Made by a program: the position numbers and the translations under genes. Source: Chromatiales bacterium (GTDB taxonomy: Bacteria > Pseudomonadota > Gammaproteobacteria > SZUA-152). From it: 35,128 nucleotides of DNA. The notes under the pieces were generated by a model, which saw only the letters and a program-made list of their open reading frames with translations, was not told where the DNA came from and did not search any database. This document shows, one piece after another, positions 1-29,563 of the stretch (position 1 is the first letter of the stretch; the number at the start of each line of letters is the position of its first letter). The stretch lies in contig JALSHB010000004.1 of assembly GCA_026982475.1 (NCBI GenBank), positions 1 to 35,128 of the forward strand, read 5' to 3'.

Positions 1-3000
1 GCATGGCGTGGTCGAGATTGGTGCCGTCGGCGGCGGTGTAATAGGCGTAAGTGGTCGAGCCGATGCGGCCTTCCACGGCCAGTGGGGAGTCGACGCGCAC
101 CAGATTGTTATTGGCATAGGTGTAACGGAAAGTACGGCCGCCCCAGTCGGTAATGCGGGTGATGTGTTGATCGCCGTTATCGTAATGGAAGGTCAGGCGG
201 CGGTTGAAGTCGTCTTGTACGGAGGCGAGTTTGTCGCCCGCGTAGTTCATGCGCAGGGTGTTGCCGTTGCGGTCGATTATGCTTAGCAGGCGGGCGGTGG
301 TGCCGAGCTTGTTGCCGTATGCGTTCGTGAGCGTAGAGGGCTTGAGGGTGCCGGATACGCCCTCAAAAATGAGCGTCAATCCATTTTTTTCGCGGATGCG
401 GTAGTTACCGTTGCTCAGGCGTTGAGCCCGGACATAAATACCCTCAGGGTTGGTCAGAATTGTGCCTACATGTACGCCATACGTCGTGCCTTCCACGGAA
501 AAGGTGTTGGTGCTGGCGGTGCCGTCCACCCAAATGACGCGGTCAACACTGCCATTGTCGTCGGTGAAGAATTTCAGGTAATGGTTGAAGCTGTGGGTCC
601 AGCCGTAGCCTAACGGGCCGTCCTTGCGGACATGGGAGTTGTAGAAGCGCTCGAAGACGATGTTCAGCCCACCGCGGCCCTTGAGGTCGATGTCCCGCTC
701 CTGTTGGTACATGTTGCCGGAGACCAGGTTGACGGGGTCGCCGCCGAAGCTGGTGCTGGGTGTCAGGCCGGTGCCGGAGCCGTTGCCCAGGTTGATGACG
801 GGCGCGGTGAAGCTGCTGGTGGGGGCGCGGAACAGTTCGTTGAATGCTGGCTGGGGCGTGAGATTTTGATAACCGGTGTTGCGGGCGCTTTCATAGATCA
901 GGGGGACGGGGGTTCTGAGGGTACGACCGCCGCCGGCAACGTAGCGGCCGGAGATGGTGAAGCCTGCGGCATATGGGCGGGTAGCTTCCTTTTCTGAAAC
1001 CCATACGGCACCCAGCCAGTTATCGTAATGAATTAGACAGCTAGGCAGCGTGATTTTGGAAAATTTCTGCTCAAATAAATAGTTGAGTTTGTTTTTGTGA
1101 TTAGTGGAGTAGTTGAGATTTGTGGGACAACCCTGATTCAGCTTGGCCTCCACGTCTGTTTTACTGGTCAGGATGACCACTGAGTTATTCGGCTGGTCGT
1201 TGGCGAATTGTATTCCCCGTACTGTGCTTACTGCATCCAGGTAGGCAACCTCCTGCCAGATGTAAGCTTCGTAGGCGGAGGCGGAAAAACCGCTGAGCAG
1301 GAAAGGGGCGAAGTTAAATGCGCCGTCGTTAATGTCTGTGCTAATGGATGTTGCACGTGGTACATCGATTAGAAGTCCTCCCCGGGATATTGCAAAGGGC
1401 AGGTCGAACAGGTAGTTCACCTTCATTGCGGTGGAGGTCAGGCCGATGTGATTGTCGCTGGCGCCAGTTGCGTTATGGAGTAGACCGATCACAGTGTTGG
1501 CTTCGGTGATATAGCGCATGTATTTGAGGCCTACGAGGTGAAGGTATTCACCCAGGGTTTCGTCCTGCAAGTCATTCGGTTCCGGGGTGGCGCCGACAGT
1601 ATTCAGCAGCCTGGCGGCACGCTCTTCCAATAAACGGTCGGAGGCTTGAAAGGCATAGGCTTGCAAGGCATGGTAGTTGTGGCCGCCGATGCTGCGATAG
1701 TTAGCGTTATTGACGGTTTTGTTGCCATGGCGGATGGTAATGCCGAGTTGATTGTTGCCGACACAAAAATCGACTGCGCGGCGAATGCCTGCCGGAGTCT
1801 TGTCTACACCTTCCAGCATGAATATGGCATGCACATTGGCGACATTGCAGGGGATAGATTCGCCTTCCCAGTTGCTGTTGATCCATCTTTGGTCGGTGGG
1901 CGTTACGCCCTTGAACGACAGGGTAAGACGCCGGGTAGCCAGTGTTGGCATGTCGAGGGTGAGCTTGGGGACTAATAGGTCATCGGCCTTATTTCTGATC
2001 ACAAACTCCGCCTGAATACGATGGGCCGCCGGTAATGCCGCGGTATCGGATCGGTCGCTGCCAGCCCAGTCCTTAAAATCCTTTACTTTATAGGGCAGGG
2101 TGCTGGGCAGGAGGTCGATGTCCCGTTGCACAATGGTGCCCCGGTAGCCGCCGCCGTGTTCCAGGGATCTGCCCAGTGCTGTTTCTATCTGATCCCGCAG
2201 GGCCTCGTGGGGCATCACCGTGGTGCGGGTGCTGAGATAATCGGTGTAGTCGAATTGAAAGTCGGGGATGTCGGCCACTGTGGTGCCGTCGGTGTAGGTC
2301 ATTTCCTTGAAACTGGGATCCAGCGGAATCCAGTGAAAGCCGCTGTTGTCGCTGCCGGAACCCCGATAGTTGTTGTAAGGCACGCAGACTTCCGTCCAGA
2401 TATGGATGAGCGTATTGGTATCTGATGCGGGTACTCTGGTGTATCGCAGCCGTTCTTTTGCTGCTTCAAATGTCTTGATGCCCAGCCAATCAAGGTAGCG
2501 GTTATCTCCATCCTGAAACTGAATTTCCCCCAACACATACCGTGCCGGATACCCGGATACACGCATCAGCGCAATCAGCAGCGATGCCTGATCCGTGGCG
2601 TTGCCAGAGCCACTTTTCAGGGTGGCGAGGGCGCCTTTGAGTGAGCCGAAATAGAGCTGGAATTCGATATTGTTTTTGATCCAGGCATAGATCTTGAGCG
2701 GGGAATGATCCAGCTCTTCAGCCAGGGCCCGAATATCGGGATCCGTGATATCGACTTCCGGCAGGGCCGAGGCGGTATCGGCGGTGACATAACCGCAACT
2801 GGCGGCCTCATCGAGCGGGGTGTGAATGGGGGCGGCATGGGCGGTGGCGATGCCCATGGCCTGTAACAGCCCATCACCAAACCCGTCAGCGGGAAACGCA
2901 TCGCGGGTGGCTGTCGTGCCGGACTGTTTTATTGCCGCCAATGGCGCGGCCGGTGCGGCATAGGCCGGTGGTGGCGCATCGGGAAAATCGTCCGGCGTCA

Positions 3001-3634
3001 GTGTGGTGGGTTTGCCTTCGACGACCGTCGGCTGGGGCTCGCCACGCACGCCGATGCGCGGCGGGTGCAGGCGCTGAAAGGTTTGTTGGGCGCGAGCAAT
3101 GGCCTGGGCCTGTGATGCAGCCGTGGCATGGGTGACGGCCGAGATGACCGCTTTCACCTCATCAAAACGCTGTGCAATCAGTAATGCCTGCTCGGAATCC
3201 TGCATGCCGTGGTCGGCCAGCCAACGTTCGGTTTCTTCGCGCAGGGTCTGAAATTCAAGCTGCTTGGCGGCCAGTTGCCGATGGATGTGTTGGGCGGATT
3301 GCGGGTTGGCTTGCGACAGTTTATCCAGTAGTTGCCGGGTATCCTCCAGGTGATGATCGAGCGTTGCACTCAGCTCATTGGCCCGGTCAGGTTTGCCCGT
3401 CGCCAGCCAGGCGCCGGCAACCCGCTGGCGCAGGGTCTCCGGGTCTAGCACGGCGGCTTTTGTTTCAGCGGATTTTTCGGATTTCTCTATGGCGGCAGCT
3501 GGCGCGGGTGAAGTACTGGCGTGAGGGGCGGAGGTGTCTTCGTGCCCTGGCAGCCCAAGGGTAATGGCCGCGACCGTGATGGCGACTGTGAAGAGAACCG
3601 CCGCCGTAATCTGGAACTTGCGATTTTTCCGCAT
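1..3634 (-). CDS. Transglutaminase-like / RHS-repeat surface protein, partial (C-terminus beyond window)
   Basis: The frame is open from ATG at 3634 to the left edge, over 1211 codons with no stop; I checked its phase at several points. The start has AAGGGA about 10 bases upstream. Residues 7-28 are a hydrophobic anchor or signal, followed by an Ala/Gln/Glu-rich, probably helical stretch to about residue 190. A transglutaminase-like core lies at about residues 290-445: the His of HIWTEV is H411 and the Asp of WIPLDPS is D439. The expected nucleophile Cys is Ala346, in SGNATDQASLLIAL, so crosslinking activity is doubtful. From about residue 960 a DUF6531/RHS section begins (GGDPVNLVSGN), followed by RHS-type YD repeats (FHYDNGDQHITRITD). 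RHS proteins form large beta-shells and often carry a variable C-terminal toxin, which here would lie off the window. It is divergent from the secreted proteins downstream. Function unknown; export across the inner membrane is likely. Confidence 0.85.
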   Translation of the reverse strand, partial: MRKNRKFQITAAVLFTVAITVAAITLGLPGHEDTSAPHASTSPAPAAAIEKSEKSAETKAAVLDPETLRQRVAGAWLATGKPDRANELSATLDHHLEDTRQLLDKLSQANPQSAQHIHRQLAAKQLEFQTLREETERWLADHGMQDSEQALLIAQRFDEVKAVISAVTHATAASQAQAIARAQQTFQRLHPPRIGVRGEPQPTVVEGKPTTLTPDDFPDAPPPAYAAPAAPLAAIKQSGTTATRDAFPADGFGDGLLQAMGIATAHAAPIHTPLDEAASCGYVTADTASALPEVDITDPDIRALAEELDHSPLKIYAWIKNNIEFQLYFGSLKGALATLKSGSGNATDQASLLIALMRVSGYPARYVLGEIQFQDGDNRYLDWLGIKTFEAAKERLRYTRVPASDTNTLIHIWTEVCVPYNNYRGSGSDNSGFHWIPLDPSFKEMTYTDGTTVADIPDFQFDYTDYLSTRTTVMPHEALRDQIETALGRSLEHGGGYRGTIVQRDIDLLPSTLPYKVKDFKDWAGSDRSDTAALPAAHRIQAEFVIRNKADDLLVPKLTLDMPTLATRRLTLSFKGVTPTDQRWINSNWEGESIPCNVANVHAIFMLEGVDKTPAGIRRAVDFCVGNNQLGITIRHGNKTVNNANYRSIGGHNYHALQAYAFQASDRLLEERAARLLNTVGATPEPNDLQDETLGEYLHLVGLKYMRYITEANTVIGLLHNATGASDNHIGLTSTAMKVNYLFDLPFAISRGGLLIDVPRATSISTDINDGAFNFAPFLLSGFSASAYEAYIWQEVAYLDAVSTVRGIQFANDQPNNSVVILTSKTDVEAKLNQGCPTNLNYSTNHKNKLNYLFEQKFSKITLPSCLIHYDNWLGAVWVSEKEATRPYAAGFTISGRYVAGGGRTLRTPVPLIYESARNTGYQNLTPQPAFNELFRAPTSSFTAPVINLGNGSGTGLTPSTSFGGDPVNLVSGNMYQQERDIDLKGRGGLNIVFERFYNSHVRKDGPLGYGWTHSFNHYLKFFTDDNGSVDRVIWVDGTASTNTFSVEGTTYGVHVGTILTNPEGIYVRAQRLSNGNYRIREKNGLTLIFEGVSGTLKPSTLTNAYGNKLGTTARLLSIIDRNGNTLRMNYAGDKLASVQDDFNRRLTFHYDNGDQHITRITDWGGRTFRYTYANNNLVRVDSPLAVEGRIGSTTYAYYTAADGTNLDHAM

Positions 3635-3925
3635 AGTTGTTCATTCCCTTGATGCGTTTTTGTCTTTCCGTTGCCTGCCTGGCTGCTTCCGTCAGGCCGG
3701 TATTGGTGCGCGGCAACGGGCGTTTGGCCGAAACATATCACAGGATTTGTGGTGATTTAGCGGTAATATTCACACTTCCCCTGTGTGGCGGGTTGTCGTA
3801 TTTTTTGGGCAACGGAGTGCCGTTATGTTGTGCGAGCCATGTCTGGATATGGAGAGGCAGGTTTGTTACGCAGTGGATCCGAAAGGCTGAATTATTTGAC
3901 CAATAGCAGACAGGGGAGGTTGGCG
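3635..3925. other. Divergent intergenic region between RHS gene and small secreted protein gene
   Basis: This 291-base gap must hold the promoters for both divergent genes. I could not assign a convincing -35/-10 pair to either strand. Open frames cross it but have no ribosome binding site and no recognisable protein. Confidence 0.4.
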
Positions 3926-4306
3926 ATGTTGACGTGTAAGCAATGGAAGAAGAAGGTGCTCCGGTGTTCGGTAGTGGCTTTGTTGGCGCTGGGGGTGGGA
4001 AGCGTGAATGCAGGAACGGTATGGATTGGTGAGGCCAAAGTGGTTCGGACGCTTAGCGACTCAACTGCATTTGGCAACTGCATGGCCTTGCTCAACAAAC
4101 CCCTAAGTGACTTTATCGGCAACTGCCCCGGCAACTGGGTAACTTTCAGCTGCAATGGCACCTATAACAGCAAGGATGCCGGCCAGCGCAAGTTCGAATC
4201 GGCGCAGCTGGCCATGGCGCTGGGCTATCGGGTCAGCCTTGTTGTGGACAATACCAAAAAACACAATGGCTATTGCTATGCGCGGCGGATAGATATCTAT
4301 AAATAG
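3926..4306 (+). CDS. Small secreted cysteine-containing protein, uncharacterised
   Basis: It encodes 126 aa. The ATG at 3926 is chosen over an upstream in-frame ATG at 3785 because AGGGGAGG lies 6-7 bases before it and a clear signal peptide follows (KKK, then SVVALLALGVGS, cleavage near VNA). The mature part is about 100 aa with four Cys (FGNC, GNCPGNW, FSCNG, NGYCYARR), enough for two disulfides. The pattern NWVTFSC, SAQLAMALG, KKHNGYC and RIDIY resembles a family of small secreted hypothetical proteins I recall from Vibrio and Xanthomonas relatives; this is from memory. The fold may be a compact beta-barrel (inference). It is probably monocistronic, since a repeat-bearing gap of 265 bases follows. 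Confidence 0.75.
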   Translation: MLTCKQWKKKVLRCSVVALLALGVGSVNAGTVWIGEAKVVRTLSDSTAFGNCMALLNKPLSDFIGNCPGNWVTFSCNGTYNSKDAGQRKFESAQLAMALGYRVSLVVDNTKKHNGYCYARRIDIYK

Positions 4307-4571: not shown

Positions 4572-6668
4572 ATGAAACAGGGAACGGAATGCCGAATTTG
4601 CCGGCCCGGGAGGCTGGCGCTTTTATTCATGGCCGCGGTGCTCTGCCTGGGGGTGTTGTCCGGGCTGGCGTCGGCCGCTGCTGTGGATACGGCCCGTGAG
4701 CGGGGCCTTGCCTGGTTGCTGCAGGCGCAGAACCGGGACGGCGGCTGGGGAGCAACACGGGAAACAGCGGCGGACGAGGGCGGCGCGACGGTCGCGGCCA
4801 CTGCCGAGGCCCTGGCGGCCCTGCGTCGTGCCGGTGTCGGTCACGGGGTGGCCTATTCGCGCGGGCTCTCCTGGCTGGCCAATGCCCGCGCCGGCAGCGT
4901 CGATGCCCTGGCACGCAAGATCATCGCCCTGGAGACGGCGGGGCTGGATGCCGGGGCCGCCGGTCTGCCCGCTGAGCTGCTGGCGTTGCGCAATGCGCAA
5001 AAGGGCTGGGGGACGTTCGATGGCTACCAGAACGGTGCGCTGGATACGGCGCTGGCGATGGAGGCGGTGCGTGTCTCCGGTATCGCCTACCCGGACACAA
5101 ATGCCTCTCTTGGCATTCTCCGTAATTTGCAAAAGGCGGGAAATGCCGGCTGGACCTATGGCGCCAAAAGCCAGTCTTCTTCGGGCCATATTTTTCCCAC
5201 CAGTCATGCGCTGGTGACACTCAGTCACTCTCTCAACCGGTATGCCGGCAATGCGACCCATATCCGTCGCGGCGTCAATTGGTTGCTGGGCCGGCAACAG
5301 GCCAATAACGCCTTTCTCGATACTGACGGCATTGTTACGGGTGAAATCCAGCAGACGGCGCTGGCCTTGATTGCCCTGGAGGCCGCGGCGGCGGCCAATA
5401 TCGCCGAGGCGGTGAATGCCGCAACACGGATGGCGGCGGCCCGCGATTTTCTGGCGGCCCGGCAAGATGCCGATGGCGGCTGGAATGGTGATGCCCTGCA
5501 AACGGCGCTGGCCCTGCGCGCCCTGCCGGCCGTGAAGCTGGCGGATGGCGATGGGGACGGTATCCCCGATGTGGTCGAGCCTTTGCTGGGTACCGATGCC
5601 GCGGTGGCCGATGGCTGGCGGCTGGGCCAGGCTGACCCGGACAGCCTGCGGGGACTGTCTTTTGTGCGGGAAGCGCTGGTCAATCGCAATTTCGCCTTTA
5701 CGCCCACCATGAGCGGTGGCCAGGCACCCTACGCCTGGGGCCTGGCGGGCGGGCATTTGCCGCCGGGGATTGCGCTGAATGTGGCAACGGGGCGGCTGGC
5801 TGGCAAACCTTCTGTGGCCGGGACCTTTCCTGTCAGTCTTTCCATTACCGATGCGGCGGTCAACAGTGTGATTGTTCCAGGGCAGATCCGCGTGCTGGCG
5901 GTGAACGAGACCGGCGTGGATACGGACCGTGACGGCATGCCCAGTGTGTGGGAGTTACAGCAGGGGTTTAATCCCACCTACGCAGGTGACGCGGCGGCCG
6001 ATGCCGATGGCGATGGCCTGAGCAATCTGCGGGAGTACCGGAATGGCACCGATCCGCGTTCTTCTTCCGCAGACAGTGATGGTGACGGCATGCCCGACGG
6101 GTTCGAGATATTGCACGGTCTGAATCGTCTCGACCCTGCCGATGCCGGCCTGGATAAAGACGGCGATGGCGTGAACAACCTGGCGGAATACCAGCAGGGC
6201 CGGAACCCGAGCGTGAACGAGGCGGCGGTGTTCGCGGTGGTGTTGATGGGTGATGGTATGGGTGACACGGACAACGATGGCCTGCCGGACAGTTTTGAAA
6301 ACGCCTACGGCCTCGATGTGAACGTGGATGATGCCGACGGGGACGCCGATGGTGACGGCCTGAGCAATATCGATGAATACCGTCGCGGCACGCGCCCGGA
6401 CAGGGCGGACACGGATGGCGATGGCTTGTCCGACGGCTTTGAGGTGCGTCATGGCTTCAATCCGCACAATCCGGCCGATGCGGCGCAGGATGCCGATGGC
6501 GATGGCTTGAGCAATCTTCAGGAATCGCAGTGGGGCAGTGATCCCGGAAAGACGGACAGTGATGCCGATGGTGTGACGGATGGCGCAGAGGTGGGCGCGG
6601 GCAGGAATCCGGCGGTCAATGAGGCGGCGGTGATGCGGCTGCTTTCCGGTGACAGGGGGAATCCATGA
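4572..6668 (+). CDS. Secreted protein: terpenoid-cyclase-like toroid, putative Ig domain and Ca-binding aspartate repeats
   Basis: It encodes 698 aa; AGGGA lies 6 bases before the ATG. Residues 1-36 are a signal peptide (LALLFMAAVLCLGVLSGLASA). Residues about 40-320 hold prenyltransferase/squalene-cyclase-type helical repeats, with QW-like motifs such as QAQNRDGGWGA and QDADGGWNGD. The DxDD acid motif of squalene-hopene cyclases was not seen, so this is likely a structural or binding toroid, not a cyclase. Residues about 363-443 look like a putative Ig (He_PIG) domain (LPPGIALNVATGRLAG). Ten DxDxDG-type thrombospondin-3/EF-like calcium motifs are present, one at 325 and nine from about 449 to the end, in units such as DADGDGLSN. 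The phrase NPSVNEAAV/NPAVNEAAV occurs twice. The stop overlaps the next start (ATGA), so the two are translationally coupled. Role unknown, probably extracellular and calcium-stabilised. Confidence 0.8.
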   Translation: MKQGTECRICRPGRLALLFMAAVLCLGVLSGLASAAAVDTARERGLAWLLQAQNRDGGWGATRETAADEGGATVAATAEALAALRRAGVGHGVAYSRGLSWLANARAGSVDALARKIIALETAGLDAGAAGLPAELLALRNAQKGWGTFDGYQNGALDTALAMEAVRVSGIAYPDTNASLGILRNLQKAGNAGWTYGAKSQSSSGHIFPTSHALVTLSHSLNRYAGNATHIRRGVNWLLGRQQANNAFLDTDGIVTGEIQQTALALIALEAAAAANIAEAVNAATRMAAARDFLAARQDADGGWNGDALQTALALRALPAVKLADGDGDGIPDVVEPLLGTDAAVADGWRLGQADPDSLRGLSFVREALVNRNFAFTPTMSGGQAPYAWGLAGGHLPPGIALNVATGRLAGKPSVAGTFPVSLSITDAAVNSVIVPGQIRVLAVNETGVDTDRDGMPSVWELQQGFNPTYAGDAAADADGDGLSNLREYRNGTDPRSSSADSDGDGMPDGFEILHGLNRLDPADAGLDKDGDGVNNLAEYQQGRNPSVNEAAVFAVVLMGDGMGDTDNDGLPDSFENAYGLDVNVDDADGDADGDGLSNIDEYRRGTRPDRADTDGDGLSDGFEVRHGFNPHNPADAAQDADGDGLSNLQESQWGSDPGKTDSDADGVTDGAEVGAGRNPAVNEAAVMRLLSGDRGNP

Positions 6669-7270
6669 AGAATAAAGGGTCAATCATCGTTGTCTTGTTC
6701 ATCGGCTGGGCGGCCGGGGCCGGGTCGTGGCACTTCTTCGTCGGGGGTCAGGGCGCCGTCAGTGAGCAGGGGATGGCGGGTACGCTGTCTTCTGTATCCA
6801 ACCCGTTGGCTGGCGGGGAGGGGGGCGAGCGGCTGGCTGTTTCGCCGCAGCCTGTCGGGTCGGTGGATCTGCCGGGGGATTCCCGTCAGGCTGCCTTGCC
6901 GCCGGCGGTTCATGAGGTGCCGCCGGACATGTCCGCGTTTCTGCTGGAGGGTGTGGATGAGGCGGGGTTTTCTGCGGATGATGGTGTGGAGCAGGATACC
7001 GGCGAGTTCATCGATGCCGATGATCCGCGGGCCTATGTTGCCTACTTGAATGCCCACTCAGACGGCGATACGGTGCAGGATACCGGTGAATTCATCGATG
7101 TCGAGAACCCATCGGCATATGCAGGCAGTGACTCTCCGCCCCGGGACACCGGCGAGTTCATCGATGTCGATGATCCGCGGGCCTACGCGGCGTACTGGGA
7201 CGGGCTGAGCGATGGCGTGGTGCGCGATACGGGCGAGTTCATCGCGATCGACGCAGGACTGGTGCCCTAG
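6665..7270 (+). CDS. Membrane-anchored protein with four DTGEFI repeats, uncharacterised
   Basis: It encodes 201 aa. The ATG overlaps the previous stop by four bases and has AGGGGGA upstream. Residues 5-26 form one hydrophobic segment (IIVVLFIGWAAGAG) with a short basic N-terminus, so the rest is probably periplasmic. Residues 30-105 are low-complexity, rich in Gly, Ser and Pro. The C-terminal half has four copies of DTGEFI at residues 111, 139, 161 and 188. Three are followed by DADDPRAY, DVENPSAY or DVDDPRAY; the fourth is degenerate. Spacing is 28, 22 and 27 residues. I do not recognise a named family. Coupling to the toroid/aspartate-repeat gene suggests a partner or anchor role (inference). 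The acidic repeats could bind calcium or serve as a docking peptide. Confidence 0.75.
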   Translation: MKNKGSIIVVLFIGWAAGAGSWHFFVGGQGAVSEQGMAGTLSSVSNPLAGGEGGERLAVSPQPVGSVDLPGDSRQAALPPAVHEVPPDMSAFLLEGVDEAGFSADDGVEQDTGEFIDADDPRAYVAYLNAHSDGDTVQDTGEFIDVENPSAYAGSDSPPRDTGEFIDVDDPRAYAAYWDGLSDGVVRDTGEFIAIDAGLVP

Positions 7271-24007: not shown

Positions 24008-24460
24008 GTGAAGCATAATTCCCTACACAGTCAGCCATTGTCCCGCCTTCAGCGCGGCTTCACCCTCATCGAAGTGATGGTGGTGGTGGTCATCCTCGGC
24101 ATTCTCGCCGCCATCGTCGTTCCCCGTGTCATGGACCGTCCGGACGCCGCGCGCATCACCAAGGCCAAGCAGGACATCCGCGCCATCGAGAGTTCGCTGA
24201 ACCTGTACAAGCTGGACAACTTCGTCTATCCCACCACCGATCAGGGCCTGGAGGCGCTGGTCAGCAAGCCCGAGGGCTCGCCCGAGCCGCGCAACTGGAA
24301 GCCTTACATGGATCGCCTGCCCAAGGACCCCTGGGGCAATCCCTACCAGTACCTGTCGCCGGGCGTGAAGGGTGAGGTGGATATCTTCTCTCTCGGCGCC
24401 GATGGCCAGCCGGGCGGCGAGGGCGTGAATGCCGACGTCGGCAACTGGGACCTGCAGTAA
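24008..24460 (+). CDS. gspG: Type II secretion major pseudopilin GspG
   Basis: It encodes 150 aa with a GTG start and GGAG about ten bases upstream. The prepilin signal is basic, then RG17-F18-TLIE22, where PilD cleaves after Gly17; Glu22 is the +5 residue. The rest matches GspG closely: [48 protein letters not shown] and the calcium-loop end [13 protein letters not shown]. It polymerises into the periplasmic pseudopilus. It is first of eight gsp genes. Confidence 0.97.
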
Positions 24461-24527
24461 GCGGCAAGGCAGCGCGTCTCTCTTTCGCGCCACTGCCGGC
24501 GGATTTGCCGTGCCCTTCATCCCGCCC

Positions 24528-25079
24528 ATGCCGCGTCAGCGGCCAACCGCCGGCCCGCGTCCCCGCGGGCCGTATGCCGTCTGTCGAGGCTTTACCCTGC
24601 TGGAACTGCTGGTGGTGATTCTCATCATCGGCATCGTCATCAGCTTCGCCAGTCTCTCTGTGGGCCAGCATGCCAGCCGCGCCCTGCAGGACGAGGCCGA
24701 GCGCATCCACAGCCTGTTGCGCCTGGCCGCGGAAGAATCGGTGTTGCAGGGGCGGGAGCTGGCCATGCAGTTCGGCCCCGGTGGCTATCTGTTCGTGACC
24801 CTCGACGGCGCCGACTGGGTGCCCGTGGAGGAAGACCGTCTGTTCCGCGAGCGGGAATTCCCGCCTGGCCTGAGCCTGGATCTGAGCCTGGAAGGCGTGG
24901 AGGTGGATCTGCTCGACAGTGAAAACCCGCCGCGTATCTTCGTGCTTTCCAGCGCGGAAATGACCCCCTTCGAGCTCACCCTCGGTAACGATGAGGGTGA
25001 GGCCTATACCCTGCGTGGTGACTTGACCGGCAGGCTTGCGCTGGCGCGCACGGGGGAGGCCGATGATGACGTCTGGTAA
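24528..25079 (+). CDS. gspH: Type II secretion minor pseudopilin GspH
   Basis: It encodes 183 aa from the ATG at 24528. The start is uncertain: a GTG at 24510 and an ATG at 24429, which would overlap gspG, are in frame, and none has a strong ribosome site. The cleavage site is CRG-FTLLELLVVILIIG with Glu at +5. A GspH-type beta domain follows (SVLQGRELAMQFGPGGYLFV). The pre-cleavage leader of about 21 residues is long and Pro/Arg-rich. It is a minor pseudopilin of the tip complex with GspI, J and K. It overlaps gspI. Confidence 0.88.
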   Translation: MPRQRPTAGPRPRGPYAVCRGFTLLELLVVILIIGIVISFASLSVGQHASRALQDEAERIHSLLRLAAEESVLQGRELAMQFGPGGYLFVTLDGADWVPVEEDRLFREREFPPGLSLDLSLEGVEVDLLDSENPPRIFVLSSAEMTPFELTLGNDEGEAYTLRGDLTGRLALARTGEADDDVW

Positions 25080-25440
25080 CCGCCAGCGCGGCTTCACCCT
25101 GCTGGAGGTCATCGTCGCCCTGGCGGTGATTGCCTTCGCCCTGTTGGCCGCGGTCAGCGCCGTGTCCGGCAACACGCGCAACGCCACCGGCCTGCAACAG
25201 CGCACCTACGCCCACTGGGTGGCCATGAACCAGATGGCCGAGCTGCACGCCAGCCGCCGCTGGCCGAGCACGCGCACCACCCGCGGCAGCAGCCTGATGG
25301 CGCGCCACGAGTGGTATTGGTCGATGAAGGTATCCACCACCCCGGACAAGAATGTGCGACGGGTGGATATCACCGTGCGTGCCGATGAAGACGACGAATC
25401 GCCGTTGGTGACCTTGACCGGCTTTGTGGGGCGTCAATGA
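25063..25440 (+). CDS. gspI: Type II secretion minor pseudopilin GspI
   Basis: It encodes 125 aa. The ATG at 25063 has GGGGGAGG just upstream, inside the end of gspH. Processing site RG10-FTLLEVIVALAVIAFALLA. The family features are the short length, NTRNATGLQQRTYAHWVAMNQ and the W at ASRRWP. It nucleates the pseudopilus tip with GspJ and GspK. It ends in an ATGA overlap with gspJ. Confidence 0.93.
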   Translation: MMTSGNRQRGFTLLEVIVALAVIAFALLAAVSAVSGNTRNATGLQQRTYAHWVAMNQMAELHASRRWPSTRTTRGSSLMARHEWYWSMKVSTTPDKNVRRVDITVRADEDDESPLVTLTGFVGRQ

Positions 25441-26051
25441 ACCGTCGCCACGGCCAAGGCGGATTCACCCTGCTGGAGCTGCTGGTGGCGCTGTCCATCT
25501 TCGCCCTGCTGGCGGCCATGGCCTACGGCGGGCTGAACACGGTGATGCGCTCGCAGCAGATCACCACCCAGCAGGCCGAACGGCTGGCACAGTTGCAGAA
25601 GACCTTCTTCTGGCTGGAGCGGGACATTACCCAGGCCGTCGACCGCCAGATTCGGGGCGAGTTTGGCGACCCGCAGCCGGCCATGGTGGGGCTCACCCTC
25701 GGCGAGCGCCGCCTCGAACTGACCCGCAACGGCTGGCGCAATCCCGTCGGCCGGCAGCGCAGCAACCTGCAGCGCGTGGCCTGGGGCGTGCGCGATGGCA
25801 AGCTGGTGCGCCTGTACTGGAACGTGCTGGACCGCGCCCAGGACAGCAAGCCGCTGGAAACCGAGATGCTGGACGACGTGGAGAAACTGGAGCTGCGCTT
25901 TCTCGATGACAAGCAGAAGTGGCACGACGTCTGGCCCGCCCTGAATCGCGGCGTGGTGGCCAGCATCAGCCTGCCGATGGCGGTGGAGGTCACCCTGGAG
26001 ACCGGCCGCGAGGGCCGTATCCGCCGCGTCTTCGAGGTGGCCGGCGGATGA
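25437..26051 (+). CDS. gspJ: Type II secretion minor pseudopilin GspJ
   Basis: It encodes 204 aa. The prepilin site is GG9-F10-TLLELLVALSIFALLAAM with Glu14 at +5. It has the GspJ patterns FFWLERDITQAVDR and LVRLYWNVLDRAQDSKPLE, followed by VEKLELRFLDDKQKWHDVWP. It is part of the tip complex that recruits secreted substrates. It starts and ends in ATGA overlaps with its neighbours. Confidence 0.95.
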   Translation: MNRRHGQGGFTLLELLVALSIFALLAAMAYGGLNTVMRSQQITTQQAERLAQLQKTFFWLERDITQAVDRQIRGEFGDPQPAMVGLTLGERRLELTRNGWRNPVGRQRSNLQRVAWGVRDGKLVRLYWNVLDRAQDSKPLETEMLDDVEKLELRFLDDKQKWHDVWPALNRGVVASISLPMAVEVTLETGREGRIRRVFEVAGG

Positions 26052-27013
26052 TCCCTTGCCGGCGCAGACAATCCGGCGTGGCGCTGATCACCGCACTGCT
26101 GATCACCGCCCTGGTGACCGTGGCCGCGGTGGCCATGGCCAGCCGCCAGCAGCTCGACATTCGCCGCACCGGCAACCTGATGGAGGCCGACCAGGCCTGG
26201 CAATACGCCCTCGGCGTCGAGGCCTGGGCGCGCCAGATACTGGCCGCGGACGACGCCTCGCGCGACACCCTCGACTATCTGAAGGATCCCTGGGCCGCCC
26301 CGGTGCCGCCCCTGCCGGTGGAGGGCGGCTCGGTGCAGGGCACGGTGGAGGACCTGCAGGGGCGCTTCAACCTCAACAACCTGGTCAAGGGCAATGGCGA
26401 ACCCGACCCGGCGCAGGAAAAGATCCTGCAGAACCTGCTTGGCCGGGTGGCGCTCACCGATGCCAAGCTAAACCTGGGCCCCTACCTGGTCGATGCGGTG
26501 GTGGACTGGCTGGACACGCGCCCCGACGTCTATCGCAACGGCGCCGAGGATGGTGACTACCTGAGCCTGACGCCGCCCTATCGCGCCGCCAACCGGCCCA
26601 TGGTCAGTCCCAGTGAAATGCTGGCGGTGGCAGGCTTTTCCGCCCCGGCGGTGGCGAAGCTGACGCCATTGATCGCCACCCTGCCGGTCGCCTTGGAGCC
26701 GGTCAAGCTCAACGTCAACACGGCGCCGGAGATGGTATTGATGAGCCTGGACGCGCAACTGACGCCACCCATGGTGCAGCAGATCGTGGCCTACCGGAAA
26801 AAGACCCCCTTCGACTCGCCGGCGGACTTTGCCCAGTACGTGAAGAGCGAGTTCGGCATCACCGTGGCGCCGAATCTGGTGGACGTGAAGAGCGAGTATT
26901 TTCTCGTCAATGCACTCGCCAGCATTGGCCGTACCAAGGTACAGTTATACAGTTTGCTCAAACGCAGCAACAACAAGATCACCACCCTTCAGCGCAGCAT
27001 CGGAGTCTATTAG
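26048..27013 (+). CDS. gspK: Type II secretion minor pseudopilin GspK
   Basis: It encodes 321 aa from the ATG at 26048, which overlaps the gspJ stop. Leader then SG10-VALITALLITALV; the +5 residue is Thr, not Glu, as is normal for GspK. LQGRFNLNNLV, the substrate-exposed middle domain and KLNVNTAPEMVLMSLD with its helix-hairpin-helix-like end are family signatures. It caps the pseudopilus. Its TAG stop shares a base with the GTG start of gspL. Confidence 0.95.
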   Translation: MIPCRRRQSGVALITALLITALVTVAAVAMASRQQLDIRRTGNLMEADQAWQYALGVEAWARQILAADDASRDTLDYLKDPWAAPVPPLPVEGGSVQGTVEDLQGRFNLNNLVKGNGEPDPAQEKILQNLLGRVALTDAKLNLGPYLVDAVVDWLDTRPDVYRNGAEDGDYLSLTPPYRAANRPMVSPSEMLAVAGFSAPAVAKLTPLIATLPVALEPVKLNVNTAPEMVLMSLDAQLTPPMVQQIVAYRKKTPFDSPADFAQYVKSEFGITVAPNLVDVKSEYFLVNALASIGRTKVQLYSLLKRSNNKITTLQRSIGVY

Positions 27014-28290
27014 TGCGTAAACAACTGTTCCTGCAACTGCCGGCAGACGACCCAGGCGAGGCCGGTGACTGGTGCTGGGTGGTGCGTGACGACGAGCGCC
27101 CCGGCGGCAGCCTGTTTCGTGGCCCCCTCGCCGACAGCGTGAAGCAGGCCGCCGGCGCGCGGGTCGTGGTGCTGGCGCCGGGGGTGGACGTGGTGTTGGC
27201 CAGCGCCGAGCTGCCCGGCCTGAACCGCCAGCGCCTGGCGCGCGCGGTGCCCTTCGCCCTGGAGGAACAGCTGGCCAGTGACGTGGAAACGCTGCACTTT
27301 GCGGTGGGCCAGCGCGACGAGGATGGCCGTATTCACAATGCCGTGGTGGCGCGCGAAAAGATCACTGCCTGGCTGGAGCAGCTGCGCGCCGCCGGCCTGC
27401 AGGCCGACGTGATGCTCTCCGAGGTGCTGGCGGTGCCGCGCGAGGCCGCCAACGACGCCGGCCGCCACTGGTCGCTGCTGATCGACGGCGCGCGCTGCCT
27501 GCTGCGCACCGATGCCCAACAGGGACTGGCGCTGGACCTGGACAACCTGGCCATCGTCCTGCAGGCGGCCGTGGACGAGGCCGGCGACGCCCTGCCGGCC
27601 CGCCTCGACGTCAAGCTCTGCGGCGATGAGGGTTTCTCCACCAGCGAGCACTATCGGCGGCTGGGCGAGACCTGCGCGGCGGCGGGCATCGAGCTGGCGC
27701 TGCAACCCCAGGACGACGATGGCGCCCTGCTGCTGGCGCGCGGTTTCGACGAAAAGGCGGCCATCAACCTGCTGCAGGGCGACTACAGCCGCCGCGGGCA
27801 ACTGGAAAAACTGCTGCGTCCATGGCGTCCGGCGGCCCTGCTGCTGGGCCTGTGGCTGGTGATCCAGCTGGGTGCCATGGGGCTGGAATACCAGCGCCTG
27901 TCGGCACAGAACGAAGCCATGCGCGCACAGATCACCGCCCTCTATCGTGAGGCCTTCCCGCAGGCGCGCAAGGTGGTCAACCCGCGCGTGCAGATGGAGC
28001 GCGGGCTGGCCAAGCTGCGCGGCAGCGGTGGTGGCCAAACGGACCTGCTCGGCCTGCTCGCCAAGGCCGGCCCCGTCCTCAAGGACAACACCGGGCTGAA
28101 GCTGCGCAGCCTGCGCTACAAGGAAAACCGGCTGGACATCGACCTGGAAATCGGCACCCTGCAGGCCCTCGACAAGCTCAAGCAGCGCCTCGGCGACGAG
28201 GCCGGGCTGACGGTGGAGATCGTCTCCGCCTCCTCGCGCGATGGCAAGGTGGAAAGCCGCATCGCCCTGCGCCGTGGAGGTGAAGCATGA
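27013..28290 (+). CDS. gspL: Type II secretion inner-membrane platform protein GspL
   Basis: It encodes 425 aa with a GTG start overlapping the gspK stop. Residues 1-260 form an actin-like cytoplasmic domain (VVVLAPGVDVVLASAELPGL, ARAVPFALEEQLASDVETLHFAVG). One helix at about residues 272-292 (AALLLGLWLVIQLGAMGLEY) precedes a periplasmic ferredoxin-like domain. It links the GspE ATPase to the periplasmic machinery. The expected partner gspE is not in this window. Confidence 0.95.
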   Translation: MRKQLFLQLPADDPGEAGDWCWVVRDDERPGGSLFRGPLADSVKQAAGARVVVLAPGVDVVLASAELPGLNRQRLARAVPFALEEQLASDVETLHFAVGQRDEDGRIHNAVVAREKITAWLEQLRAAGLQADVMLSEVLAVPREAANDAGRHWSLLIDGARCLLRTDAQQGLALDLDNLAIVLQAAVDEAGDALPARLDVKLCGDEGFSTSEHYRRLGETCAAAGIELALQPQDDDGALLLARGFDEKAAINLLQGDYSRRGQLEKLLRPWRPAALLLGLWLVIQLGAMGLEYQRLSAQNEAMRAQITALYREAFPQARKVVNPRVQMERGLAKLRGSGGGQTDLLGLLAKAGPVLKDNTGLKLRSLRYKENRLDIDLEIGTLQALDKLKQRLGDEAGLTVEIVSASSRDGKVESRIALRRGGEA

Positions 28291-28781
28291 AGGCCTGGTT
28301 CGAGACCCTGGACCCGCGCGAGCGGCGCATGCTGATCATCGGCGCGGCGCTGCTCGGCGTGATGCTGTTCTATGTGCTGGTGTGGGAGCCGCTGGAACAT
28401 GGCGTCGAGACCCTGCGCAAGAGCAACGCCGAACAGCAGGCCCAGCTGCAATGGATGCAGCAGGCGGTGGCCGAGGTCAAACGGCTGCGCGGCAGCAGCG
28501 GGCGATCCGCACAACTGGCCAAGGGGCAATCGCTGCTGGCGGCCATCGACCGCGCCGCGCGCGCCAACCAGCTCGGCGACGCCCTCAAGCGCGTGCAGCC
28601 CGACGGCAGCGAGCGCGCCCGGGTATGGCTGGAAAACGCCAGCTTTGACAAGATCATGCGCTGGGTGGACAGCCTGCAACGCCAGCAGGGCGTGCGCGTG
28701 GTGAGCAGCGTGTTCGAGGCGCGGGAAGAAAAGGGCCGGGTCGACGCGCGCCTGGTGTTCGAGAGCGGTGGCGGGGCATGA
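28287..28781 (+). CDS. gspM: Type II secretion protein GspM
   Basis: It encodes 164 aa and starts in an ATGA overlap with gspL. One N-terminal helix (MLIIGAALLGVMLFYVLVW) precedes a periplasmic coiled-coil and ferredoxin-like domain (LRKSNAEQQAQLQWMQQAVAE). The NASFDKIMRWVDSLQ segment is typical. It binds GspL in the inner-membrane platform. Confidence 0.92.
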   Translation: MKAWFETLDPRERRMLIIGAALLGVMLFYVLVWEPLEHGVETLRKSNAEQQAQLQWMQQAVAEVKRLRGSSGRSAQLAKGQSLLAAIDRAARANQLGDALKRVQPDGSERARVWLENASFDKIMRWVDSLQRQQGVRVVSSVFEAREEKGRVDARLVFESGGGA

Positions 28782-29563
28782 GGCTGCGACTCAACTGGCG
28801 CTATCTGCTCATCGGCCTGCTGGCCTATGTCGCCTTTCTCATCGTGCAGTTCCCGGCCGATCGTGCCTATGCCTGGTGGAAGGCCGGCCCCGGCGCGCAA
28901 CAGAAGGTGGTGCTTACCGGACTTTCCGGCAGCGTCTGGCAGGGCAGTGCGCGACAGGCGTTGATCGGTGACCAGCGCCTGCAGGGCCTGGAATGGCACT
29001 TCAAACCCTGGACCGTGTTGCTCGGCAAGCTGGCGCTGGACTATGAGCTCCGTCTCCATGACGGTTTCATGCGCGGCTCCGTGGCGGCCGATCCGCAGGG
29101 GGCGGTAGACGTTACCGCGCTGGAGGCCAAGCTGCCCCTGGCGCAGCTGTCACTGCCGGCGATTGCCGCGCTGCGGCCCTCCGGGATGGTCAATCTCAAC
29201 CTGCGGGACGTGGACTGGAACGGTGAGGCCCTGCTCTCCGCGCAGGGGCGCGTGGTGTGGACGGATGCCGGCATCAGTCTGTTGCAGCCCTTGCAGTTCG
29301 GCGACCTCGCCCTGACCCTGGAGACCCGCGACGACGGCGTGGTGGGTGAACTCAGCGATGCCGGCGGCCCCCTGCAGGCCGAGGGCCTGCTCACCCTCAA
29401 GGCCGATGGCAGCTACCAGTTCACCGGCAGGTTCAAGGCCCGCGAGGGTGCACAGTCCCCCCTCGGTCGAGCCCTCAGCGCCCTGGGCCGCCCTGGCGCG
29501 GACGGCAAGATCCCGGTCAACCGCACCGGGCGGCTGGCGGATCTGGGCATCGCGTCCAGGTGA
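28778..29563 (+). CDS. gspN: Type II secretion protein GspN
   Basis: It encodes 261 aa, with a start overlapping the gspM stop (ATGA). One N-terminal helix (YLLIGLLAYVAFLIVQFP) and a beta-rich periplasmic domain follow, with the GspN pattern LTGLSGSVWQGSAR and LEWHFKPWTVLLGKLALDYEL. GspN is an accessory subunit absent from many systems; its role is unsettled. It is the last gene of the operon, and no clear terminator was found before the convergent toxin gene. Confidence 0.92.
   Translation: MRLRLNWRYLLIGLLAYVAFLIVQFPADRAYAWWKAGPGAQQKVVLTGLSGSVWQGSARQALIGDQRLQGLEWHFKPWTVLLGKLALDYELRLHDGFMRGSVAADPQGAVDVTALEAKLPLAQLSLPAIAALRPSGMVNLNLRDVDWNGEALLSAQGRVVWTDAGISLLQPLQFGDLALTLETRDDGVVGELSDAGGPLQAEGLLTLKADGSYQFTGRFKAREGAQSPLGRALSALGRPGADGKIPVNRTGRLADLGIASR

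What the first reader, a model, noticed from the sequence alone, without database searches (positions are those of the whole stretch)
1..3634. RHS protein with a transglutaminase-like domain that lacks the nucleophile cysteine
His411 and Asp439 of the triad are present, but the Cys position is Ala346 (GNATDQ). A retained fold without catalysis suggests a binding or structural domain, or a different chemistry. The C-terminal tip, where RHS proteins carry toxins, is off the window.
Basis: partly seen in the sequence, partly recalled or inferred. Interest (0 to 1): 0.55.

Follow-up and report, generated by a model that had tools for sequence, protein, structure and literature searches.

The report
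Dead-transglutaminase RHS toxin with pseudocyclase partner
The gene at the window's edge encodes an exported toxin-delivery-type protein whose enzyme-like front domain has lost its key cysteine, as have its close relatives, and it sits beside a gene for a second exported protein that also looks like a disabled enzyme, which suggests the two work together as a binding pair.

Summary
ORF 2-3634 (-) has Ala346 where transglutaminase-like (TGL) enzymes have Cys, with His411 and Asp439 intact, a Transglut_core match and a confident TGL model. It is neither a frame error nor an isolated loss: among 91 distinct relatives from several phyla the position is Ala 50, Asp 22, Pro 10, Ser 8, Gly 1, Cys 0, while His is kept in 88 and Asp in 91. 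The domain type is already published: inactive TGL domains N-terminal to RHS in polymorphic toxins, proposed as peptide-binding anchors (Zhang et al. 2012, PMC3482391; passages seen). Not found described: (i) a neighbouring exported alpha/alpha-toroid protein (window 4572-6668, +) of terpene-cyclase fold, also without its catalytic Asp (0 of 68), linked to this TGL in 72 of 80 loci and present in 18 of 24 TGL-positive genomes; (ii) members without detected RHS repeats. Best reading: a two-component, surface-exposed polymorphic toxin system in which the dead TGL is a docking module, probably for or alongside the toroid partner. Binding is inferred, not shown. The toxin tip lies off the contig.

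The parts
2..3634 (-). RHS-type protein, first 1211 aa; no stop before the contig end
   Evidence: open frame; DUF6531 and Transglut_core matches
3545..3634 (-). N-terminal basic plus hydrophobic segment (residues 1-30), signal peptide or membrane anchor
   Evidence: read from the sequence; no signal-peptide predictor was run
2285..2764 (-). Cys-less transglutaminase-like domain (residues 291-450)
   Evidence: Pfam PF01841 312-440; model pLDDT about 97 and TGL structural matches
2597..2599 (-). codon of Ala346 at the nucleophile position
   Evidence: 0 Cys of 91 relatives
2402..2404 (-). codon of His411 (triad His)
   Evidence: His in 88 of 91
2318..2320 (-). codon of Asp439 (triad Asp)
   Evidence: Asp in 91 of 91, 18 of 20 in a set not chosen by peptide patterns
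2306..2314 (-). codons of Ser441-Phe442-Lys443, family signature next to the Asp
   Evidence: Ser and Lys 91 of 91 (inflated by the search pattern); 17 of 20 and 19 of 20
755..2284 (-). shared core after the TGL (residues 451-960), present also in members without detected RHS
   Evidence: alignment A2, near-invariant Pro514, Ser786, Glu789, Ser803; model
500..742 (-). DUF6531, entry into the RHS shell (residues 965-1045)
4572..6668 (+). partner gene: exported toroid protein, 698 aa, transcribed divergently
   Evidence: linkage; co-occurrence
4677..5531 (+). alpha/alpha toroid domain of terpene-cyclase fold
   Evidence: model pLDDT 93.7; Z 27.2 to drimenyl diphosphate synthase, 265 aligned, 24% identity
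5040..5042 (+). codon of Leu157, at the position of the central Asp of the DxDD motif of squalene-hopene cyclase
   Evidence: alignment; no Asp in 68 rows
5685..5867 (+). He_PIG Ig-like domain of the partner
6408..6473 (+). best of five TSP3_bac repeats of the partner

Best explanation
The gene encodes the N-terminal part of an exported RHS polymorphic toxin whose TGL domain is a pseudoenzyme: the cleft is kept, the nucleophile is not, and the domain serves to bind. The co-inherited neighbouring gene encodes an exported pseudo-terpene-cyclase toroid fused to adhesive modules (Ig-like and TSP3 here; VWA, CarboxypepD_reg or cadherin-like in relatives). Most likely the two act together outside the cytoplasm: the toroid protein provides the surface anchor or receptor-binding platform, the TGL-plus-core module docks to it (or to a peptide or glycan ligand that it presents), and the RHS shell carries a variable C-terminal toxin. 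SHOWN: absence of Cys, retained fold (predicted), linkage and co-occurrence with the toroid gene, absence of the central DxDD Asp in the toroid, known toxin or pretoxin domains at the C-terminus of several relatives. INFERRED: loss of catalysis, docking as the function, the toroid as docking partner, surface location, antibacterial role.
For: Cys 0 of 91, His 88 of 91, Asp 91 of 91; in 22 strong matches from a profile search of 369 genomes Cys 0 of 22, His 21 of 22. Toroid gene in 72 of 80 loci, 41 of them upstream on the same strand within 100 bp or overlapping; all 8 without it have a contig end within about 1.1 kb of the TGL frame on at least one side. In 369 genomes of the class: TGL family (E<1e-20) in 24, toroid (E<1e-25) in 22, both in 18, of which 15 on one contig; Fisher p 6e-22. 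Distances of the two domains correlate at r 0.87 over 63 loci, 0 of 2000 permutations reach it; paralogous pairs within one genome diverge in step. Partner modules: VWA, CarboxypepD_reg, CARDB, Big_9, cadherin-like, TSP3. C-terminal toxin or pretoxin domains in relatives: AHH nuclease with PT-HINT, PT-HINT, SLT; Tox-URI2, NucA/NucB, HNH with PT-TG, Ntox43, PT-HINT. Precedent for a dead transglutaminase relative: EPB42 named 'catalytically inactive' (PMC10318531, passage).
Against: No interaction was measured and no complex was modelled. Six of 24 TGL-positive genomes show no strong toroid match, and four toroid-positive genomes show no strong TGL match. The r of 0.87 includes shared descent of the host species, and nearest neighbours agree in only 35 of 63 loci. 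His and Asp are kept more strictly than a pure scaffold would seem to need. Five of ten RHS tips examined had no toxin or pretoxin domain match, that of the closest complete relative (L059) included. The tip and any immunity gene of the window's own protein were not seen.
Confidence: 0.5

Rival explanations
1. The dead TGL is a general surface anchor that binds cell-wall or envelope peptides of its own cell, as proposed in 2012, and the toroid gene is a second, independent surface protein of the same operon.
For: Position after a signal or TM segment and before RHS; proposal in PMC3482391 section 19 (passage). Structural neighbours include enzymes acting on wall-like peptides (PeiP and PeiW, Z about 9.9).
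Against: The stable pairing with one partner fold across phyla, often with overlapping frames, is more than co-location of two unrelated surface proteins would predict. The partner's adhesive modules could themselves anchor.
Confidence: 0.25
2. The TGL domain has a Cys-independent activity: His411, Asp439 and the family-specific Ser441, Lys443, Arg424 and Asp348 form a re-purposed site.
For: Near-invariance of these residues over phylum-level divergence (identity to the window's core down to 22%).
Against: No alternative nucleophile at the Cys position (Ala, Asp, Pro, Ser, Gly). In two of the more distant members even the Asp is lost (Thr, Ala). The same residues could be structural or ligand-binding.
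Confidence: 0.1
3. The Cys loss is decay of an unimportant domain in a degenerating or orphan RHS gene.
For: The frame is cut by the contig end, and other RHS pieces lie at contig edges of the same genome.
Against: Strong conservation of the rest of the domain in 91 relatives; congeners read the same motif.
Confidence: 0.03

Closest known systems
Inactive transglutaminase domains of polymorphic toxins (Zhang, de Souza, Anantharaman, Iyer, Aravind 2012, PMC3482391; passages seen)
   Same: N-terminal TGL after a signal/TM segment, triad incomplete, RHS repeats follow, variable toxin tips
   Different: The paper says RHS repeats follow; 8 of 8 shorter members given to Pfam here show no RHS or DUF6531. 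The words prenyltransferase, squalene, toroid and terpene do not occur in the held text (first 300,000 of 357,715 characters).
PF01841 Transglut_core enzymes (e.g. 3isr, Cytophaga hutchinsonii)
   Same: Fold; His and Asp of the triad, Trp and Glu of the HxWxE motif
   Different: No Cys at the nucleophile position in any of 91 rows; family-specific S-[FY]-K after the Asp
Squalene-hopene / class II terpene cyclases (for the partner gene)
   Same: Toroid fold and QxxDGSW-type motifs; Z 27.2 to 7xqz, 265 aligned; last Asp of DxDD kept in 62 of 68
   Different: Central Asp of DxDD absent in 68 of 68; exported and fused to adhesive modules
Alpha-2-macroglobulin / complement thioester domain (TED)
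   Same: Weak toroid match (PF07678, 23.5 bits against cut-off 22)
   Different: The only column with more than 5 Cys is position 181 (25 of 74 rows); no CGEQ seen in the window protein
EPB42 (erythrocyte protein 4.2)
   Same: Transglutaminase homologue without catalysis (PMC10318531 passage); it appears among the fold matches (7tvz_E, 7uzs). That its Cys is Ala and that it acts as a scaffold is recalled, not from a call.
   Different: Eukaryotic membrane-skeleton protein, not a toxin carrier

Membership tests
Transglut_core enzyme (active) | Cys-His-Asp triad | tested here: not met
   Ala346; 0 Cys of 91
Transglut_core superfamily (fold) | Profile match over the curated cut-off and TGL fold | tested here: met
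   56.6 bits against cut-off 23; VIA Z 10.2, rmsd 2.7, 133 aligned
Inactive-TGL RHS polymorphic toxin | N-terminal signal or TM, TGL lacking triad residue(s), then RHS | tested here: met
   signal read by eye only
Inactive-TGL RHS polymorphic toxin | Variable C-terminal toxin domain with immunity gene | tested here: inconclusive
   Tip of this protein is off the contig. Relatives' tips: 5 of 10 with a toxin or pretoxin match. Immunity genes not examined.
Class II terpene cyclase (partner) | DxDD motif with central catalytic Asp | tested here: not met
   Leu157; 0 Asp of 68; the catalytic role of the central Asp is recalled knowledge
Thioester (TED) protein (partner) | CGEQ thioester motif | tested here: not met
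   No such Cys column in 74 rows

The most novel reading that the evidence does not exclude
A widespread, undescribed two-pseudoenzyme export system: a dead transglutaminase on the toxin recognises a dead terpene cyclase on the partner, possibly with the retained His-Asp-Ser-Lys set forming a new, Cys-independent site that links or releases the two proteins at the cell surface.
Probability: 0.12. Interest if true: 0.82.

Novelty: new variant of a known kind. Interest (0 to 1): 0.5.

Why it matters
How exported RHS toxins of Gram-negative bacteria that carry a signal or anchor segment are displayed or delivered is poorly known (recalled knowledge). A co-inherited partner with adhesive modules gives a concrete, testable candidate for the missing surface component. 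A domain in which the nucleophile alone is gone while the rest of the catalytic frame stays under constraint is also a good case for studying how enzymes become binding modules. The dead TGL itself is not news.

Tried and rejected
Frame error: rejected, since congeners and distant relatives read through the same motif. A Cys elsewhere in the active site: none among the conserved columns. Thioester protein for the partner: no CGEQ-type Cys column. Active terpene cyclase for the partner: central Asp absent. Part of the T2SS operon at 24429-29563 in the window: no direct link, as GroESL-type and respiratory genes lie between; one plasmid relative (L055) has pseudopilin and GspE/F-type genes beside its RHS gene, a lead only.

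Bias: the 80 loci were picked by two peptide patterns, one of which includes W435, D439, S441 and K443, so their invariance is inflated; the Cys position lies in neither pattern. The check without peptide patterns (22 strong matches, some on the same contigs as the 80 loci, e.g. equal contig lengths 41659, 38905 and 301446) gave Cys 0 of 22, His 21 of 22, and among the 20 that span the C-terminal part Asp 18, Ser441 17, Lys443 19. Thresholds 1e-20 and 1e-25 for the co-occurrence count were set after seeing the score gap, and the toroid profile was trained on loci of this family. Without the window's own genome the count is 17 of 23.

Rows dropped before the count of 91 (106 rows): three canonical rows with Cys (L032, L033, L034; frames of 297-304 aa, N-terminal half only), two divergent rows (L055, L056; Ala), partial rows and identical duplicates. 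Of six weak matches fetched for contrast, four have Cys and two do not. For structure and mirror analysis 80 and 68 rows were used, 63 loci having both. The regular-expression count of RHS repeats was too crude and is not used.

Searches that led nowhere: papers on dead TGL with RHS beyond PMC3482391 and PMC10318531 (passages seen) and PMC13274458 (passages seen, not relevant) (listings seen); papers joining squalene cyclase or prenyltransferase with RHS, TGL or polymorphic toxins (none relevant in the listings). NCBIfam gave nothing for the RHS protein. Folds of the core after the TGL (about residues 570-960) were barely tested, as the tool itself notes.
Full report
Observation. The window is contig C4 of a 224-contig genome from base 1. 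The minus-strand frame 2-3634 gives 1211 residues and runs off the contig. Residue 346 is Ala in GNATDQ, 411 is His, 439 is Asp. Pfam places Transglut_core at 312-440 and DUF6531, which introduces RHS shells, at 965-1045. The genome's two other Transglut_core places keep their Cys (FCEHYAS and YCYAKSH), so Cys loss is a property of this protein and not of the genome's TGLs.

Is the Cys always absent? A profile from eight sequences was used to scan a collection of 84,980 species genomes; 311 relatives were confirmed and the best 80 kept. In 91 distinct complete rows the position is Ala 50, Asp 22, Pro 10, Ser 8, Gly 1 and never Cys. His411 is kept in 88, Asp439 in 91, Trp435 in 91, Arg358 in 91, Arg424 in 90, Trp383 in 90, Ser351 in 90, Asp348 in 90, Ser441 and Lys443 in 91. 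Because one search pattern contained W435-K443, I checked 22 strong matches found by profile in 369 genomes of the class: Cys 0 of 22, His 21 of 22, and of the 20 that span it Asp 18, Ser441 17, Lys443 19. So the nucleophile is missing throughout while the rest of the frame is under constraint; the Asp is lost in a few distant members. Weak matches that keep Cys (GDC, GVC) are ordinary TGLs.

Structure. The model of residues 284-975, built on 80 related sequences, has mean pLDDT 86.8 and about 97 over the TGL. VIA-align gives 3isr_A (Z 10.2, rmsd 2.7, 133 aligned), PeiP 8z4f_A (9.9, 3.0, 131), PeiW 8jx4_D (9.8, 3.2, 133), TglA 9crn (9.8, 3.4, 141); these are tied. Foldseek alone had nothing at E <= 0.001 for the whole model. 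Sequence search against solved structures with the profile finds only 3isr, and its aligned stretch carries Cys where this family has Ala (GVCRDFAHL against GNATDTASL).

Surroundings. The divergently transcribed gene 4572-6668 encodes a protein with an N-terminal hydrophobic segment, a toroid domain (squalene-hopene cyclase C-terminal match 5e-10; TED 23.5 bits), a He_PIG domain and five TSP3 repeats. Its toroid model has pLDDT 93.7 and matches terpene cyclases at Z 27.2 (265 aligned, 24% identity). Aligned with squalene-hopene cyclase, the central Asp of the DxDD motif falls on Leu157; none of 68 toroids has Asp there, 62 keep the last Asp. That the central Asp is the catalytic acid is recalled. 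So the partner is probably also a pseudoenzyme.

Linkage. Of the 80 loci, 72 hold a toroid gene: 41 immediately upstream on the same strand (at most 100 bp or overlapping), 8 upstream within 2 kb, 6 upstream further, 15 downstream, 2 divergent (the window's own clade; the window itself is a further divergent case). All 8 without it have a contig end within about 1.1 kb of the TGL frame on at least one side. Hosts of linked pairs range over Gamma- and Betaproteobacteria, Geobacter, Nitrospirae, Zixibacteria, Bacillus, Ruminococcus and Marinifilum (titles; linkage). Two plasmid relatives (L055, L056) had no toroid by the profile; the plasmid of Spartinivicinus has it 42 bp upstream, annotated 'prenyltransferase/squalene oxidase repeat-containing protein'. 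In 369 class genomes: TGL 24, toroid 22, both 18, 15 on one contig; Fisher p 6e-22. Among the 78 genomes with only weaker TGL matches, 2 have a strong toroid (G103, G113). Distances of the two domains correlate (r 0.87, 63 loci, 0 of 2000 permutations); this includes host phylogeny, but paralogous pairs inside one genome diverge together (TGL/toroid distances 0.89/0.97, 0.18/0.31, 0.74/1.10, 0.92/0.73).

Architecture across the family. Eight proteins of the shorter type (977-1471 aa) were scanned: all eight have Transglut_core and none shows RHS or DUF6531; two carry PT-HINT (one of them followed by an AHH nuclease), one has an SLT transglycosylase match. Of ten RHS tips (last 350 residues), five show toxin or pretoxin domains (Tox-URI2, NucA/NucB, HNH with PT-TG, Ntox43, PT-HINT), one only an RHS match and four nothing, including the closest complete relative L059. 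Toroid partners carry VWA, CARDB, CarboxypepD_reg, Big_9, cadherin-like, SBBP and TSP3 modules (eight scanned). This is the profile of a polymorphic toxin with a surface partner.

Literature. Zhang et al. 2012 (PMC3482391; passages seen) report inactive transglutaminase domains N-terminal to RHS in polymorphic toxins, with one or more triad residues lost, and suggest peptide-binding anchorage. So the finding as stated is known. The toroid association was not found in searches of the held library, nor by find in that paper's held text; subscription papers are mostly not held.

Mechanism. The data favour a binding role for the TGL cleft with a dedicated partner. Shown: missing nucleophile, kept fold (predicted), gene pairing, missing central Asp in the partner. 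Inferred: no catalysis, docking, surface display, antibacterial use. A Cys-independent chemistry is possible but has no candidate nucleophile.

Noticed in passing
window 3785-4306 (+): Small protein, signal-peptide-like start inside the frame, between the divergent pair; relatives only in the window's clade (L023/L057, L025/L059).
   Followed up: partly
window 6665-7270 (+): 201 aa protein with N-terminal hydrophobic segment and repeated DTGEFID motifs, overlapping the stop of the toroid gene; same clade only.
   Followed up: partly
L029 10706-16973 and L027 5773-9075: Tandem partial TGL copies that start within the domain, downstream of an intact copy, resembling displaced cassettes.
   Followed up: no
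G000 contigs C101 (left edge) and C139 (right edge): L051, L050: RHS pieces 67% and 38% identical to parts of L059's RHS region and core end; candidate tail pieces of the window gene, compared apart and not joined.
   Followed up: partly
L023 end, L024 both ends, window base 1: Contigs of three congeneric genomes all break inside the same RHS gene, which suggests repeats or strain variation there.
   Followed up: no
L055 323-6861: Methylomonas plasmid with pseudopilin, GspE/F-type and PilN/O-type genes next to a divergent TGL-RHS gene.
   Followed up: no
window 1226-1279 (residues 786-803 of the RHS protein): Near-invariant residues in the core after the TGL (Ser786 and Glu789 80 of 80, Ser803 78 of 80), of unknown role.
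   Followed up: no
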